Positions 26,932-37,781 of a DNA stretch of 64,000 bases are shown here, in pieces. Below the pieces are notes generated by a model. It was not told where the DNA came from, searched no databases, and worked only from the letters and a program-made list of their open reading frames with translations. The translations under genes were made by a program, and so were the position numbers. Position 1 is the stretch's first letter, and the number at the start of each line of letters is the position of its first letter. The stretch covers positions 1,431,939 through 1,495,938 of the forward strand of contig PDUO01000007.1 of assembly GCA_003008705.1 (NCBI GenBank), given 5' to 3'. Source of the DNA: Pezicula radicicola (Eukaryota; Ascomycota; Leotiomycetes; Helotiales; Dermateaceae).

Positions 26932-27181
26932 CAAAGGTTATAGCAAAAAGTTTAGAGACTATAGGGACCTTTAGGTAATTAACTACTAATACTATAGTAA
27001 TAGGTTATAGGGGTCTAAGTAACCTAGTCCTCATTTATATTACCTAAGCCTACTATAATCTACCTACTACAACCTATAGATTAGGTAGAATAGGGGCAAG
27101 TTATAGGCTCTTATATACTATAAGTTATTATAATATTTTTATAACTACCTATAGTCTCTAAAAACTTTACTGTAACCTTTA
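26932..27181. mobile_element. 250-bp MITE, internally deleted copy of the 33.2-35.6 kb transposon, RIP-mutated
   Basis: Both ends carry the same inverted repeat (aaggtta..gcaaaaagttt..agagac) and TA dinucleotides flank them (26930-26931 and 27182-27183). Its left ~120 bp match the right end of the large element at 35.4-35.56 kb (reverse complement) and its right ~130 bp match that element's left end. The differences are nearly all C-to-T/G-to-A with the MITE being the T/A-rich one. It codes for nothing. Confidence 0.85.
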
Positions 27182-27555: not shown

Positions 27556-29027
27556 TTAGATTAATGTAACTCCGAACCTCCTACTTCCGCCATTTGATGA
27601 TTTAAGACCAGAGTCAGGAGAATCGTTAGCAGTACGCTGGCAGCATTCCCTGATATCTCCCGCATTATCATCATTCATTTCGAAAATACCGCGACGGACA
27701 AAATAGCCTTTACGATTCTTGCCTTCGGCAATAATAAGTCCAGTTAAGGGGTGTCTCTGTTCAGAGTCCTCCGATAGCCTATAAGTTCCACCGCAGACAG
27801 GCACTAAGTAATAGGTTTCATCTATATCTTCGGCCTTGAACGAGTGGTCCCACAATGAAAGTATCGATTCTTTAGAAAACATAGGGAGGAACTATTGGAA
27901 TCTAACTATTCAAGCTGAGGTCAACCTTCCTTGACAGACCCAGCCTCGCTCCCAAAGCCGAGCGGTAGCGATTCCGTTGTACCAAATTTTGGGGTCACAC
28001 AGGTAGACCTCTTGCTCTTCATCTTGACTTGTAGTCCTAAACGAGGTCCGGAGGGGGGAAATTCCTGTCGGCTCCCGCTTATATATCATCCCAACAGAAC
28101 TATCTTTCAACGCTACTGCGGATAGCTTATAGTGTCCATATAAGTAGACTTCTCCCATCAAGGCAGCTTCATACTGCCAATCCTCTTCTGAATCTTGTAT
28201 GATGCACAACGAGTCAATCCATAAATGTCGACCGCCTAGGCCTCTCACAATGTAGATAGCATCTCGGAAATTTCGAGGGAGTTTCTCGCAATCAATCTGT
28301 ACAAATATCGACCGTAGATTATCTTTTAATAGTCTTTCAGGCATCGGCTTCTTCCCCCCAGCAGTGGCTAAGAGTAAAGTGGCTTGCATTTTGTGGGAGG
28401 TCTTTCCCCAGGCAAAGTCGGACTTTGTCCGTTGCAGTGTCCCCGATATCGATCAAGTGTGTCGGCGAAATGTTCCAGTCATTTCTCGACAATTGATATG
28501 TTGAGCTTTACAATTTTCAATCCACTTCCGCGCAAGTCCCAAGCTCTCTATGGACACCGTTGAGTTCCCTAACAAAATATCTTTCGGCGTAAATTCCAAT
28601 GCTAGACCTTCTCAGCCGTGAACTAGATTGAACGGATAATATACGGACTTACGGAGTTCAGGACAGCGAGTATTGAACGATGTACATCTTGAGCGTCCGA
28701 ACGATCTGATCCAACCGATATAACTGCATCCAAACTATGGTATTCAAAATGTCCAATTTGCTTTGAATACGTAATGACAATTTACCCGCGATGTTCATGT
28801 TCTCAGACGAAATTATGCACAATAGTACGATTATCTGGGCGTGTGCCACCACGGGAGATTCTGAGGAAGAGCGTGCAGAAATGACAGCCTTGAACCACTC
28901 TGGATTCGAGCCGCTGCCCCGTCTGACCGAGCACACCTCCATCCGGCACTGTGCCAAAAGAATTGAGAACCACTCGACAAGTATTGCACAAGGCCTTGGT
29001 TTCACTGACTGGCTGTGGCGACATCAT
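27556..29027 (-). pseudogene. HET-domain gene broken by frameshifts and a stop
   Basis: The N-terminal zone (29027-28803) reads LCNTCRVVLNSFG and GCHFCTLFLRIS, typical for HET proteins. After a disturbed stretch come ESLGLARKWIENC, then in another frame PTHLIDIGD, KVRLC and HFTLSHCWG (the YCWG block). A third frame follows at a run of six G (near 28358), giving KDNLRSIF, LPRNFRDAIYIVRGLGGRHLWIDSLCIIQDSEEDW, GEVYLYGHYKLSAVA and RGWVCQGRL where QERL is expected, with a stop at 27910. A last piece (27882-27556) holds the C-terminal domain in a further frame. At least two indels in coding blocks cannot be introns because the blocks are contiguous. The Glu-to-Gly change and stop fit ongoing decay. 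Confidence 0.88.
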
Positions 29028-30831: not shown

Positions 30832-32209
30832 CACTGCTGATACAGACAGAATGACTTGAGCGCGAAGAACTAGTGGAGATATCAGCCGATGAGCCAACAG
30901 TGACCTAACTGTTGATTGGATGCCTTACACGTTACTTCCCCCACAAGTTTGAAGAGACCGGCGTTCGTGGAGGGATTTACAAAAGAGAAGTTGATAATGT
31001 CTTAGCGTTGTTTAGATGATGATGGAGGGTGGATTGAAGCTGCGGCCGTGTTCGACGTCAGCATGCGAACGTTGTGAAGAAGAGAGAGATGTTGATGAAG
31101 AGAGAATGAATGGAAGGAAGAGAAAAGAAGAGTGCGAAACTGCAGTTGAAGATATGTACAAGGCAGGAGCACTAGTGCAAAGCGTAGGTCGGGTACCCTT
31201 CGTGCCTTCTGTTCAAGTATAGTCGCCACCCATCACCTTCACTTTCAGCAAAAGTATCATCACTCATGCTTGACCCACCATTACCATAACTTATTTCCTC
31301 ACACACACCTCAACTTACCCAATTCTCTTTGAAATTGGTACAAAGAATGCCCATTCCCGCTCCGTTAAAAGTGTTTTCTTCTCCAGATACTGTGTCCAAC
31401 AACAACACAAAACACAAAATGAAACGTCTCTACACTACATTGTCATCCATTCTTACCTTGTTTTCCTGTTTCTCATTAATTCTCGAAATCCGGATGTAAG
31501 ATGTTATATTTGATTAGGTATAGATGTATGTTTACATACCTTGTCCGAAGAATAGGTACGCACAAATCTGATCAGAATAATCGTTACTTAGGTCCTCGTG
31601 CAAGTATCGTCCACTATCTGAATCTGAATTTTATCATCTATCATGGCCATTGCTGCTAGTGCTGGAGTTGGACGACCTTCTCATAGTTGTAGAGTTATTG
31701 CTTATTATTCGTTGTCTTGATTCTTCTATCTGCATTGACGTCCTCACGTTCCTGATTATCGGAGTCTAAAAGAAGTGCGCATGAGATGTATTTCGAGAAG
31801 GCGATTGTGTGTACTGATGTGAATTATTCATCCTCCTCTTCATCATCTTCTTCATCTTTCTACTCTCCATATTTGTCACCCTCCTCCTTTCATGGCTTTC
31901 CTCATTATTTTCACTTTTCTTCTCACCACTGCCTCCAAGCACAAAAACCCCACAACATCCACTCCCCCTCTGTTCGACGCTTTCTGAAAGGCAAAACATC
32001 TTCAAATCAACTTAATCTCCAACTTTTCACTTCCACGATTTATAAAAAGTCACTTAGTCACCTCGCTTAATTTAACTTCCCTCGCTCCAGCAAAGGCACC
32101 CTGGTACAGCACAACTACTGCAAGTCAAACAATCTGTTTTTTCTAACAATATATTGTAAATGAGTGGAGTATATAACTTTTCGTGTTTACTGAAAAAATC
32201 ACCAATCAT
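30832..32209. other. Intergenic with simple-sequence stretches
   Basis: Contains a (TCC/TCA)-rich low-complexity run near 31830-31860, which creates serine-rich spurious frames, and no convincing gene. It spans the start of the zinc-finger gene and the 3' end of the SDR. Confidence 0.45.
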
Positions 32210-35200
32210 CTAAAACACCATTCTCATCTTCAACTTATCACCCTCAACAATCTCCTTTTCCCTGCTTATAAACTCCGGCATATCCCAAGGACAAGCGATA
32301 TAGCGACCAGCAAGCCAGTCACGCTTCTCGCTTGTCAAGAAGACCATGGTATCAGCTGAGAGTTCTGGAGTATCAGTGAGAACTATTTCACACAGTTAGC
32401 AAATCTTCGCACTGTACAGAAATCCAAAACAGTAATAGTAGCCAAAGGACCCTGCAATACCAGAAGAAAAGAATAGAAATCAAACATACCATAATGCATA
32501 TCCTCCGGCATATTCAAAGCCAACTCCGTAACAACCCCACCCGGATGAACCGCAAAAGCCAAAACGCCCCTCTCCGCATACTCAAGACACAAAAACTCAG
32601 TGAACCTCAAAACCGCAAACTTAGAACTCTGATACCCACTCCCACCACTTACCAAATTCAAAGCCCCAATAGAACTCAAATTAACAACCGTCATATCCCC
32701 ACCACACCTCATCATCAAAGGTAAAAGTCCCCTAGTAACCCAATAAACCCCCCTAACATTAACCTCCCAAGTCCTCCACCACTCCCCCCCATCCCCATCC
32801 ACATCCCCCTCAACAAGCGGCAAAAACCTCTCAAGATACCCGGCATTATTAATCAAGATATCCAACCTCCCAAATTCCTTCTCCGTCTGAACAACAGCAG
32901 CATCCACACTCTCCTTATCCTCAACATCCAACTTCATAGCCAGAATTTTCGGGACCTCTTTACCAGCTAATTTCGCAGCGTCTTCGATTTCTAGAATTAG
33001 CGAATCGAGGGAACTTCGTGCACTTATTGCTATTGCTGAGGCGCCGGCTTTGGCGTAGGAGATTGCTAGGGCGCGTCCACATCCTTTAGAGGCTCCGGTT
33101 ATGAAGATGTATTTTCCGGTGCAGTTGGATTGGGTGATGGGGTTTATTGCTTCGTAGGTGTCTTTGTGGATGATTTTGGTGAAGTTTATGCCTGGATGAT
33201 GGTGGGGTTTTGTGTTAGTGGAGTTTAGATGGGTATGAAGGTATGAAGGTTATGGCAAAAAGTTTAGAGACTATAGGTGGTTATAGGGATGTTGGGACAG
33301 CTTATAGGGTATAAGAGCCTATAACTAGCCCTTGTTCTACCAGAGATATAGGGCGTAGTAGGTAGATTATCCCTTTACCGGCCAGAGCGGATTTTAGTGT
33401 GACGCTTGGGCTATATAGTCACGTATACCTAGAACACTAAAATCTAAATCAATATAAACAACCCCCTTAAGTTATTATATACTACTATTAAATACCTATT
33501 TACCCTATATTTACCCTGTAAAGTCGTGAAATTTATATAACTATAGATACTATACTAGATAGTATAGACCTAGGAATATTAAGGCTAAATCTAGCTCCTG
33601 TAATAAAAATTAGGACCGATTTTAAGCCCTTATTCTATCTACTATTTAATAAGAAAATCAACCTCCCTTTAAACATTTCTCTATATAATTCCTTTATGAT
33701 TTAGGATCTATTCTTTCCTAGAGATTAACTTTAGATTATTATTAATAATATTAATAATTATTAGCCTAAGCTGAATCTAAAGAGGCCTTAAAAGAAGAGT
33801 ACCCGGGTATAAAGACTACTTATACTCGAGGAGCTATATACCTTCCTTACGATTTAGATTTATATAGGTATTTACTATAAGAATTAATTAAAAGACTATT
33901 AGTATATAAAAGAGGGCTTTATAAATTATAAGGATATATAAAATACTATAGGAAAGAATTACTAGTTTAATATAAGTTAGAGACTTTATCTCTACTCTCT
34001 ATCTAACTTTATAAATTTAGATATTTATTCTATAATAAGTATAATCTATATAAAGCTAGTATATAGTTTAGAGTTAATTAACCTTATAAGCTTTAGATAG
34101 AATCTATTAATTTATATATATTAAAGAAGTCTAAAGAGTTATAGATACCTAAAAGAGATATTATAGTTAATAAATCTATAGAGTAATTTTAAGACTAATC
34201 TAATAATACCCTAGTTATTCTAAATAAGCTAATTTTAGAGGGATATAAAATATAAATAATTATATAAGAGGACTATATATTATATTAGATTTAGTATAAG
34301 AAAGGAAGTAAGAAAAGCTAAGGTCTATAAGGAGTTAAAGTTCCTAAGAAGCTTAAAGGTAATAAAACTTTAGTTATTATTATTGATTTAGTTCTTAAAC
34401 TATCTAAGTAAACTCTTTTCTATTATCTCTATCTCAATAACCTATTTATAAATATCTAGTTATTAGAAACCCTCCTTAATAAAGGTATTAGAACTATTAG
34501 AACTTATTAAACTAACTTAGGAATATTTAAGGAATATAGTAAAATAAAGAAGTAAGATAAAAAAAAAGATAAGATTCCTTAGGGAACCTTATTCTATATA
34601 CCCTTAGAAGATAATTGAATTATCTATATAGCTTAGAAAGATAATACTCTTTACTTATTTATAAGTATAATATACTACCTAGAGAAGAAGATTAAGAAAA
34701 AGTAGAAGAGGCCTAAGACTACCTCTTCTATAGTTAAAATAACTTAAGTTCCTTTTAGAGATTCTCCTACTAAGGATCTATATATACCTGAAAGCTTTAA
34801 TGATTATAATAGACTTATAAGGTAAGTTAATTAGATAGATTAACTAAGAGGTGAAATAATTAGATTATATTAAATTTATAAAGGAGGTTAGTATACTATA
34901 TAGTACTTTCTCTTCTTTATAATCTTAGTTAACTTATATAAGCTCTCTCTTTATTCTTAGATACTTGAATTAGAGTATTTTATAACTTAAAGAGTCTTTT
35001 AAATTAACTTTATAAATTACTTATTTTAACTTAGTAAAGAGATTTTAAATTAAGTACTTAAGAAATAAAAATATAATTAAATTAAAGTCTTAAACTTAGA
35101 CTTTAATTTATCTATTTAGAGCTATAAGTTAGAGTAATATAGAAAGTATTAAGATTATTATTTATATTAGGTAGTTAGGAGGTATTAGGAACTAAATATA

Positions 35201-35669
35201 TATACTTCTTTAAGTAAAATTTCTATTAAAAATATACTAAATAACTATAGGAAAGAGTTAGTATATAAGTACCTCTAGTATAATATCTCTCTTTATAAAG
35301 ATAGACCTTATTTTAACTATTTCTATAGAAATATACTAAGTTGACTGATAGGTATCTGAAATCGAGGTAATTCAGTTATCTGATTGGCTCGCTTACCCCT
35401 GCTACGCTAAAATCCGCTCCCGCTGGCCGGCAAAGGGATAGTGTGTTTAGGTAGGGTAAAAGAGGACTAGGTTGCTTAGGCCCCTGTAGCCTATTGCTGT
35501 AGCATTGGTCATAGACCGCCTAAAGGTCCCTGTCGTCTCTAAACTTTTTGCCTAACCTTCGTAGGTTGTTTTCTGGGGTAACTTAGGTGTAGTGCGGGGT
35601 TGGGGGGTTGGATTGGAAGCGAGTATTATACTTACCAGTTTCTGGCATTACTGGTGGGTATGCAGGCAT
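32210..35669 (-). CDS. Short-chain dehydrogenase with a transposon in intron 1
   Basis: Exons 35669-35636, 33191-32490 and 32382-32210 join in frame to 302 aa. Motifs: ITGASKGCGRA (cofactor loop), DVEDKESV, LDILINNAG, WEVNVRGVYW, VVNLSSIG with the catalytic Ser, GYQSSKFA (YxxxK), and HPGGVVTE. It is a classical SDR, NADP-type likely from the ARS after strand 2; substrate unknown. Intron 1 is 2444 nt and contains the 2318-bp element at 33244-35561; without it the intron would be about 126 nt, close to the other introns here. The 12-codon first exon has a good ATG context and a GTAAG donor, so the gene may still be expressed if the long intron is removed; if not, it is a split pseudogene. Confidence 0.83.
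33244..35561. mobile_element. 2.3-kb TIR DNA transposon, RIP-degraded, inside the SDR intron
   Basis: The ends are inverted repeats sharing ggcaaaaagtttagagac, flanked by TA on both sides (33242-33243 and 35562-35563), as for Tc1/mariner/pogo elements. About 140-180 bp inward a second inverted block of about 35 bp (atcccttt.ccggccag..agcggattttag) is shared by both ends and is the only GC-rich part. The interior (33.45-35.35 kb) is extremely AT-rich with stops in all frames, so any transposase is destroyed. Its 250-bp derivative is at 26932-27181. Confidence 0.85.
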
Positions 35670-36672
35670 TTTGACGGTGAGACTTTGGATTGCGTAAGAT
35701 AGGAACGTGAAAATAAAGAGAAAGTTGTTTGATGCAAGGCAATAAAGTGAATGGAGTCGAAAAGACGAAGGATATAGAAAGATATATAGATATAAGTCGG
35801 AGATACGACTTATCTAATTTGGGAAATACATGGAGGTAATCCGGAGTTATGGCTTGCTGTTTGTGGGGATCGACGTCACGACACTACTTATTTCCATGGC
35901 CTTTAAACTGGACCTCTTAACTCCGAATACATATCTACCACTCAGCTCCAGTTATTTCAATAATCGGCCTTCGAGATATTAGAAATCAGGCAATGGTGAA
36001 ACACAAGTGGTGGGAGGTTGAATGAGATAAACCTGAATGGGCGATAGTGCAGTCGGCCTGCGGAGCAACCTGCCTAACTGTCAGGTAGCGACAACCTCAA
36101 GATGAGCTGTTTGACACTTTGTGACCTTTGTGGTGTTTTGTAAACACGGAGAAATTTACACCTTACTTACAAAGTGAAATTTGATAGAGATAGGGAAATC
36201 CCTCGACATTGCAGCAGTCTAGACAATGTTCTCTCACACCATCTCCGAAGCGAGGATGTCTAGAAAAGAGGTGACTGCCTGGTAGGTAATTGAAAAGTGT
36301 CTCCACAGGAGATACCCAGAAAAGATGGTCAATAATGGAAGTTCCCTGTTAGCAACAATAAAGATTAGAAAGTTCTCCAAGCCTAGTCACTCACCCAGTG
36401 ATGAAGGCGTCTGAATAAAATCACTTTATATCTGCTGGCAGCAAGTACGGCAGTAATGTTTGTCTTTAATCTCGATCGTGGGTAGTTTTACCCATCAACA
36501 GACCAAAAACAACTCAATGAAAAGGACGTATCCAGGGGTATCAAATGTTGAGATTGTCTTTTGCGTCTCAAATAATTACATGGTAACATGATTCGTTGCG
36601 AGCCTTGTATATATACGAAGGTGTCATTCCACACAGTGTTCACAAACACCATATCGTCTCATTACCAGCGTT
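35670..36672. other. Intergenic, promoter side of the SDR
   Basis: No gene supported. The 3' end of the neighbouring KKRGRPKK-motif gene is at 36673. Confidence 0.45.
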
Positions 36673-37781
36673 TTACGCCTCCTTCGGCTGAGGTTCAGCC
36701 TTTGCCTTTTCAACTGAGGATTCGACTTCTGACATCCCAGGCGCAACAAGGTACTTTCTCTCCTCTCCCATTACCACTGCAACTCCGTTAGCTCAAGTCC
36801 GAATCGGCAAATGCTTACAAGCTAGTACTCACATCGTTCATATAAAACATAACTCGTCACAATCAGAATTGGCATAGCCACAATTGCCATTGTCACCTTC
36901 CTTGCTACAGGCTTGTAATTTGGGGGTAGTTGTGTTTTCTCGCTCGGAAGTGGCCTTGCCCCAGCTCTTCCTGATATATTTGAGACTATTGCAGAATTTA
37001 GGGCCGCAACGGGGATCTTTGGTTTTGGAGCTGAGTTTGGCGGGGCTTTGGAAGGTGTAGATATTGGTTTGGTGGGTTGTGATTTGGGCTTCGCAGACTC
37101 GGGGGAGGATGTGGATGGCGATTTGGAAGCTATTGTTGGTTTTGAAGATGATTTATTAGGAGTAAGAGGTGACGCGGCTGCCTTTGGAGAAGCTGAGGGT
37201 TGTGCAGTCGGCGGCGTGGTTATACTACGTGCGGTAGGTTTCGCTATCATGGAAGGTTTAAATGCTTGAGCGATCTTTGTAGGAGGTTGAGGATTCTCGA
37301 ATGCGTTTTTCGGCAGTTCCCTTACTTTGCTGAGGATCTGTGAGTTTTCTGGTGTGACTGTCGCCTTCTTCACATCTGGGACGACTAATTTTTCCGCCGC
37401 TGGAGTTTCCGACACTGCAGGCTTCACTGCAGAGGTTGGGGTTGCTTGCTTGGTTGGAGCAATTGGGCTTGCTGCTACAACAGGCTTCGATGGGGCTGTC
37501 ACCGAATTCGAAGTTCCTGACGTCAATGGTTGTGCAGTTGCTTTTGACGCCCCAGCGGACTTAGGCGCAGGCTTGGTCGCAGTCTTTTTGACCGGTACAG
37601 GCTTTGTAGCAGGCTTTGATACATCTGAAGCCTTTGTTGTGGTGGTGGTTGACTTCGCAACCTTGGTAGTCTTCGCTCGAGTTGTCGTCTTTGGCTTGAG
37701 CACATCAGCCAATTCGGCGTCCATTGGGTCAACGACCTTCTTTGGCCTTCCTCGCTTCTTGACGATCTCGGTAGCTGACAT
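36673..37781 (-). CDS. Low-complexity protein with an AT-hook-like motif and a C-terminal membrane helix
   Basis: Exons 37781-36833 and 36776-36673 (intron 56 nt) give 350 aa. Residues 8-15 read KKRGRPKK, an AT-hook-like core. About 250 residues of Lys/Pro/Ala/Ser/Thr repeats follow (TKPAPKSAGASK, KPKSQPTKPISTPSK), disordered. Near the end a single hydrophobic segment (VTMAIVAMPILIVTSYVLY) is followed by ERLVMGEERKYLV and an acidic-basic tail. The C-terminal 60 residues look like the conserved part, with the membrane helix anchoring the protein. The combination is odd: an AT-hook predicts DNA contact, the helix predicts a membrane. The basic motif may simply be a charge cluster. Confidence 0.75.

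What the first reader, a model, noticed from the sequence alone, without database searches (positions are those of the whole stretch)
33244..35561. A 2.3-kb transposon sits inside the first intron of an apparently intact SDR gene
Seen: SDR exon 1 (12 codons plus 1 nt, 35669-35636) and exon 2 (from 33191) fit in frame, with good splice sites, and are separated by 2444 nt, of which 2318 nt are a TIR element flanked by TA. Without it the intron is about 126 nt. Known: fungal introns are usually under 150 nt, so an intron of this size is rare and may be spliced poorly. Inference: the gene either tolerates the load, uses a new promoter in the element, or is silently dying.
Basis: partly seen in the sequence, partly recalled or inferred. 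Interest (0 to 1): 0.75.

Follow-up and report, generated by a model that had tools for sequence, protein, structure and literature searches.

The report
Mutated transposon nested in gene intron
Inside the first intron of an intact-looking fungal enzyme gene sits a small older mobile element that was itself hit, very recently, by a larger transposon which the fungus then riddled with mutations, so the gene's intactness does not yet show that it still works.

Summary
The insertion is two nested elements: a 249-nt MITE-like element (126 + 123 nt arms) split by a 2069-nt element (33370-35438) of the DDE_Tnp_1_7 (piggyBac-type) transposase family. Against a copy elsewhere in the genome the inner element differs at 370 of 2073 positions, all C>T/G>A: repeat-induced point mutation (RIP) on a very recent insertion. 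The MITE arms are not RIP'd. The nearest paralogue has the same 34-nt exon 1 and a 56-nt intron at the same position and phase; six other paralogues read through without that intron. The inner insertion is so young that a dead gene would still look intact, so the open frame is no evidence of tolerance. A promoter inside the element cannot give the normal protein: the first in-frame ATG of exon 2 is codon 97. Most likely (inferred, no RNA seen) the allele is expressed poorly and has had no time to decay. Ordinary parts, an unusually clear natural test case.

The parts
35636..35669 (-). SDR exon 1, 34 nt = 11 codons (MPAYPPVMPET) plus 1 nt of codon 12 (Gly); donor GTAAGT follows
   Evidence: N-terminus compared with 120 listed homologues; same exon 1 length in paralogue C79
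33192..35635 (-). SDR intron 1, 2444 nt; CTAAC at intron nt 2418, acceptor CCAG
32490..33191 (-). SDR exon 2, cofactor-binding and catalytic part (adh_short PF00106, E 1e-38 on the open frame 32386-33249)
32383..32489 (-). SDR intron 2, 107 nt
32210..32382 (-). SDR exon 3 to the stop codon; spliced product 302 aa
33244..33369 (.). Outer MITE-like element, left arm (126 nt)
35439..35561 (.). Outer MITE-like element, right arm (123 nt)
33370..35438 (+). Inner 2069-nt element, DDE_Tnp_1_7 transposase family, transposase sense + (antisense to SDR) judged from its relatives, RIP-mutated; ends TCCCTTT...AAAGGGA
33242..33243 (.). TA flanking the outer element, left
35562..35563 (.). TA flanking the outer element, right
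26935..27179 (.). A second copy of the outer MITE family in the window, without the inner element and itself RIP-like

Best explanation
Two nested insertions in a short intron that the gene shares with its nearest paralogue. Shown: a 249-nt MITE-like TIR element lies in intron 1 of an SDR gene; a 2069-nt element of the DDE_Tnp_1_7 family entered the MITE at a TATA; that copy differs from its C55 sister only by C>T/G>A changes, while the MITE arms around it do not carry RIP. Inferred: RIP mutated the inner copy in place in one or more sexual cycles. All splice signals of intron 1 (GTAAGT, CTAAC, CCAG) lie outside both elements, so a full-length mRNA is still possible, but only by removing 2444 nt instead of about 124 (empty) or 375 (MITE only). 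I expect (inferred, about 0.6 taken by itself) that most transcripts fail, by retention of the intron or premature 3' ends in the AT-rich insert, giving a hypomorphic or null allele that looks intact because it is very young. If the intron is retained, translation stops after 28 residues.
For: Nesting: query split and independent copies. Ages: inner copy v C55 = 2073 aligned, 370 differences, 370 of 370 C>T/G>A, 0 other, 0 gaps; the SDR MITE copy has 8 private non-RIP changes (6 transversions, 2 T>C/A>G) at sites where at least 75% of six siblings agree. RIP signature: CpA 197 of 220 changed, CpG 96 of 134, CpC 46 of 231, CpT 31 of 298; first and last changed sites 33377 and 35403. RIP confined to the inner element: in the MITE arms 1 of 8 CpA and 0 of 7 CpG sites changed; 200-nt windows wholly outside 33244-35561 (32000-33199 and 35600-37099) have composite RIP index -0.98 to +0.27. 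Short intron elsewhere: paralogue C79 56 nt; intron 2 of this gene 107 nt. Retained intron 1 gives a 28-residue product. C5-methylase (PF00145) matches over the cut-off at four loci. At the 95% bound the 909-nt CDS would have gathered about 0.7-1.3 substitutions since the inner insertion, too few to expect a visible lesion.
Against: No RNA data, so the functional outcome is untested. The inner element holds no consensus donor GTRNGT on the SDR sense strand (0; C55 copy 3, C89 copy 5; 35 of 200 shuffles of the RIP'd sequence also give 0) and AATAAA is not enriched (2 v 4.8 in shuffles), so the sequence itself gives no positive sign of mis-splicing or premature polyadenylation. The three 200-nt windows that hold MITE arms (33200-33399, 35400-35599, 35500-35699) do have a high RIP index, 0.92 to 3.08; I read this as the TA-rich make-up of the MITE family, because site by site the arms are not RIP'd. 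The intron is not general: of eight paralogues read, only the nearest has it. The gene may have lived with the MITE for much longer and stayed intact. C55, otherwise identical, is not RIP-saturated, although RIP is expected to hit both members of a pair (recalled).
Confidence: 0.72

Rival explanations
1. The gene tolerates the load: the 2444-nt intron is spliced efficiently from the original sites and the SDR is expressed normally.
For: All splice signals intact and outside the elements; no competing consensus donor in the inner element; ORF intact; at positions where at least 85% of the 120 listed homologues agree it departs only at V40I, L172M and K178M and has extra residues at 144-147 and 174.
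Against: Intron about 20 times its length without the insertion; 9 branch-plus-acceptor matches lie in the inner element on the sense strand (10.1 in shuffles); the ORF has had no time to decay, so its state is uninformative.
Confidence: 0.3
2. The inner element was already RIP-mutated elsewhere and was then moved into the MITE by a transposase acting in trans.
For: The outermost ends are nearly free of RIP (8 changes in the first 100 nt, 4 in the last 100), so the termini stayed recognisable; the MITE arms next to it carry no RIP.
Against: Thinning of RIP at repeat edges is expected anyway (recalled); the one RIP-rich relative compared base by base, L030, is no twin (650 differences, 317 transversions). 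The other RIP-rich relatives (L027, L028, L029, L035, L039 by composition) were not compared site by site, so a twin is not excluded.
Confidence: 0.12
3. The gene uses a new promoter in the element and makes a shortened protein.
For: Transposons can carry promoters (general knowledge).
Against: First in-frame ATG in exon 2 is codon 97, after the cofactor-binding motif; none in frame back from the acceptor to the next stop; the transposase sense is opposite to the SDR.
Confidence: 0.03
4. The whole 2318 nt is one transposon with long imperfect TIRs, as first read.
For: Subterminal inverted repeats continue inward.
Against: The two parts have separate copy families with separate ends, and 10 of the 12 other MITE copies aligned run continuously across the junction (TTAYAG); L020 has a gap there and L021 differs.
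Confidence: 0.01

Closest known systems
RIP-mutated DNA transposons of filamentous ascomycetes
   Same: Only C>T/G>A changes against an un-mutated copy, CpA first; RIP is described as acting on repeats over 400 bp (passages of PMC7074731)
   Different: Here the mutated copy lies inside an intron of an apparently intact gene; CpG is hit nearly as often as CpA, whereas that review names (A/T)pCp(A/T); and an otherwise identical sister that is not RIP-saturated (C55) survives in the same genome
Ti-tr1 of the truffle Tuber indicum (passages of PMC3864998)
   Same: DDE_Tnp_1_7 transposase, TIRs, and TA at the ends instead of the piggyBac TTAA
   Different: 52-bp TIRs reported there; here an empty-site comparison suggests a TATA target with no net duplication, or equally a 2-bp AT duplication
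Fot1 in an intron of niaD, Fusarium oxysporum (recalled, nothing seen; one search did not return the original)
   Same: A roughly 2-kb TA-flanked element in a fungal intron that, as I recall it, damages transcripts and inactivates the gene
   Different: As I recall it, no RIP and no nesting there; different transposase family
Intronic heterochromatin and IBM2/EDM2 in Arabidopsis (abstract and opening of PMC5364540)
   Same: Repeat DNA in an atypically long intron threatens 3' end processing of the host mRNA
   Different: In that plant system heterochromatin on the insert plus IBM2/EDM2 prevents ectopic 3' ends; no fungal counterpart was looked for here

Membership tests
RIP | Differences from an un-mutated copy are C>T/G>A, with CpA preferred | tested here: met
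   370 of 370 against C55; CpA 197 of 220, CpG 96 of 134, CpC 46 of 231, CpT 31 of 298 sites changed. Against C89, 369 of 429
RIP | Limited to the repeated DNA | tested here: met
   MITE arms 1 of 8 CpA and 0 of 7 CpG changed; windows wholly outside the insertion index -0.98 to +0.27 (the gene flanks were judged by index only)
RIP | Depends on a RID-type methyltransferase and a sexual cycle | tested here: inconclusive
   PF00145 at four loci, not assigned to RID or DIM-2; sexual cycle not testable
piggyBac superfamily | DDE_Tnp_1_7 transposase | tested here: met
   PF13843, E 2.1e-24 to 9.7e-16 in four frames of relatives L041, L037 and L025, not in the RIP'd copy itself; weak PDB matches, piggyBat 5.4e-05 and 6x67 2.3e-04
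piggyBac superfamily | TTAA target-site duplication | tested here: not met
   13 of the 20 loci were read at both ends, the window's own copy included: 13 of 13 show TA[TCCC...GGGA]TA and 0 of 13 TTAA
Tc1/mariner-type MITE (outer element) | Short, TIR, no coding capacity, TA duplication | tested here: met
   249 nt with TIR; TA on both sides here and in siblings win27k, C63 and C97, on one side only in C61 and C112_L014; coding capacity not searched in siblings
Tc1/mariner-type MITE (outer element) | Mobilised by a named autonomous partner with the same TIR | not tested
   14 matches to the TIR core at up to 1 mismatch were listed; no partner transposase was looked for
classical SDR | adh_short domain with TGxxxGxG, NNAG and YxxxK motifs | tested here: met
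   PF00106, 1e-38; TGASKGCG, NNAG and YQSSK read in the translation; motif definitions recalled

The most novel reading that the evidence does not exclude
The fungus transcribes and correctly splices across a 2.4-kb intron filled with saturated RIP DNA, which would mean that fungal cells can mask heterochromatin inside a gene, as plants do with IBM2/EDM2.
Probability: 0.12. Interest if true: 0.65.

Novelty: new member of a known kind. Interest (0 to 1): 0.4.

Why it matters
It is a clean natural experiment: a short intron shared with the nearest paralogue, a two-step insertion whose second step is very recent, RIP confined between intact splice signals, and an otherwise identical sister copy elsewhere in the genome. 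It allows a direct test of whether RIP DNA inside an intron blocks elongation or splicing in a fungus. It also shows that an intact reading frame is no proof of function when an insertion is this young.

Tried and rejected
Single-transposon reading: rejected. New-promoter reading: rejected for the normal protein. Idea that RIP removed cryptic donors: dropped, since 35 of 200 shuffles of the RIP'd sequence also have none. Idea that RIP enriched polyadenylation signals: not supported (AATAAA 2 v 4.8 in shuffles). The first comparison of the inner element with C55, C89 and C4 had the copies in the wrong orientation (45-51% identity) and was replaced. Second nested case (L063): one junction found, the far end not; the first 1439 of its 7501 nt read N. 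Intron conservation: besides the nearest paralogue C79, seven further paralogous loci were read; six (L046, L047, L048, L050, L051, L052) have an in-frame ATG in a continuous frame before the matched part, so no intron is needed there; L053 was not resolved. The intron is therefore shared with 1 of 8, and my earlier thought that it is conserved was given up. The insertion-site pattern was searched with an expression that already asks for TTAYAG, so I rest the count on the alignment. The transversion counts (9 to 20 per sibling) include misaligned ends in C85, C112_L013 and C87; one search used six cleaner siblings of the twelve aligned. Literature: ten searches of the open-licence library listed no paper that I could recognise, from title and abstract, as reporting a RIP'd nested element in an intron of an intact fungal gene; only five papers were opened (outline or passages), so this is no claim that none is in print. 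PMC6416283 (passages) says that the location of elements within genes could not be studied. PMC4832277 (passages) reports a Fot1-like insertion in pacX, not an intron case that I could confirm. No species name was obtained: the best SDR homologue is 63% identical (Coleophoma cylindrospora).

Full report
What was checked. The insertion spans 33244-35561 (2318 nt) with TA on each side, and an 18-nt terminal core occurs exactly at both ends. Exon 1 is 35669-35636: 34 nt, 11 codons plus 1 nt. The donor is GTAAGT, the acceptor lies at 33192/33191, and intron 1 is 2444 nt, of which 124 nt remain without the insertion and one TA. Intron 2 is 107 nt and the spliced protein has 302 aa.

The gene model is sound. 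In the 120 best listed homologues (6967 found among 8000 scored) the N-terminus aligns with exon 1: Gly12 in 105, Pro5 in 77, Tyr4 in 45; 97 of 120 have 8-20 residues before the column of residue 13. The nearest paralogue in the same genome, C79:255949 (50% identity), has a 34-nt exon 1 and then an intron of 56 nt at the same position and phase, giving MATYPPVVPPNG. Six of seven further paralogous loci read need no intron there and one was not resolved. The intron is thus shared with one of eight.

The insertion is two elements. A genome search with its first 197 nt gave two sets of matches, one to positions 1-127 and one to 125-197. The outer family is a short TIR element; one search listed 16 matches, some of them halves of one copy, and another copy lies in the window at 26935-27179. 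The inner family has end-to-end copies at C55, C89 and C4 besides the window's own (45 matches listed, many partial). At the insertion point 10 of the 12 other MITE copies aligned read TTAYAG, one has a gap and one differs, while the SDR copy reads TTA[inner]TAG. So the inner element seems to have entered a TATA with no net duplication, or equally with a 2-bp AT duplication.

Age and RIP. Against the C55 copy the inner element shows 370 differences in 2073 positions, all C>T/G>A, with no reverse transition, no transversion and no gap; against C89 it shows 429 differences, of which 369 are C>T/G>A, 32 reverse transitions and 28 transversions. By context 197 of 220 CpA, 96 of 134 CpG, 46 of 231 CpC and 31 of 298 CpT sites have changed. 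Changes begin at 33377 and end at 35403, with 8 in the first 100 nt and 4 in the last 100. The MITE arms are not RIP'd: at sites where at least 75% of six siblings agree, 1 of 8 CpA and 0 of 7 CpG have changed; the sibling at 26935-27179 by contrast shows 11 of 12 and 11 of 12. The 200-nt windows wholly outside the insertion have a composite index of -0.98 to +0.27; three windows holding MITE arms reach 0.92 to 3.08, which I put down to the TA-rich make-up of the MITE family. Zero ordinary differences bounds the non-RIP divergence from C55 at 0.00145 (95%), about 0.7-1.3 substitutions in the 909-nt CDS. The SDR MITE copy has 8 private non-RIP changes in 249 nt, so it is older than the inner element as a lineage; that does not date its insertion here.

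What it does. Intron retention, or use of a possible acceptor after intron nt 63, would each give a 28-residue product. The first in-frame ATG in exon 2 is codon 97, so an internal promoter cannot replace exon 1. The inner element has no GTRNGT donor on the SDR sense strand (1.9 in shuffles), 9 branch-plus-acceptor matches (10.1) and 2 AATAAA (4.8). A correctly spliced mRNA is thus possible. [quoted passage not shown] From that and from the length I infer a weak or null allele; RNA is needed.

Kinship. Relatives of the inner element carry PF13843, but 0 of 13 copies read at both ends have the TTAA of piggyBac. The truffle element Ti-tr1 shows the same combination, with TA (passages of PMC3864998). 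I therefore call it a DDE_Tnp_1_7 element and do not file it in piggyBac. The outer element is MITE-like.

Changes on checking. The claim of a conserved intron was reduced to one shared with the nearest paralogue, the exon-1 codon count was corrected, and one search was added to test whether RIP spares the MITE arms.

Verdict. An ordinary kind of event, unusually well resolved: nested insertion, RIP, and a young allele whose intact reading frame says little about function.

Noticed in passing
window 26935-27179: This 245-nt MITE copy is RIP-saturated by comparison with six siblings (11 of 12 CpA, 11 of 12 CpG sites changed), although it is shorter than the 400 bp usually quoted for RIP; perhaps spread from, or pairing within, a longer repeat.
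   Followed up: partly
G000:C109:1186823-1188079 (in L063): Another copy of the outer MITE abuts a RIP-rich relative of the inner family at a different point of the MITE, so the MITE may be a repeated target (one junction only).
   Followed up: partly
L025 2110-3419, L037 1116-2941, L038 1218-2728: In less mutated relatives of the inner element the transposase lies in two frames that meet at one nucleotide, perhaps an intron or a frameshift.
   Followed up: no
window 27910-28452 (-): Open frame with a HET (heterokaryon incompatibility) domain, PF06985.
   Followed up: no
G000:C131, C36, C135, C120: C5-cytosine methylase (PF00145) matches at four loci; not assigned to RID or DIM-2.
   Followed up: partly
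G000:C55:1034668-1036740: Sister of the inner element, identical to it outside C>T/G>A sites and not RIP-saturated, although RIP would be expected to hit both members of a pair; it may have arrived later by crossing.
   Followed up: partly
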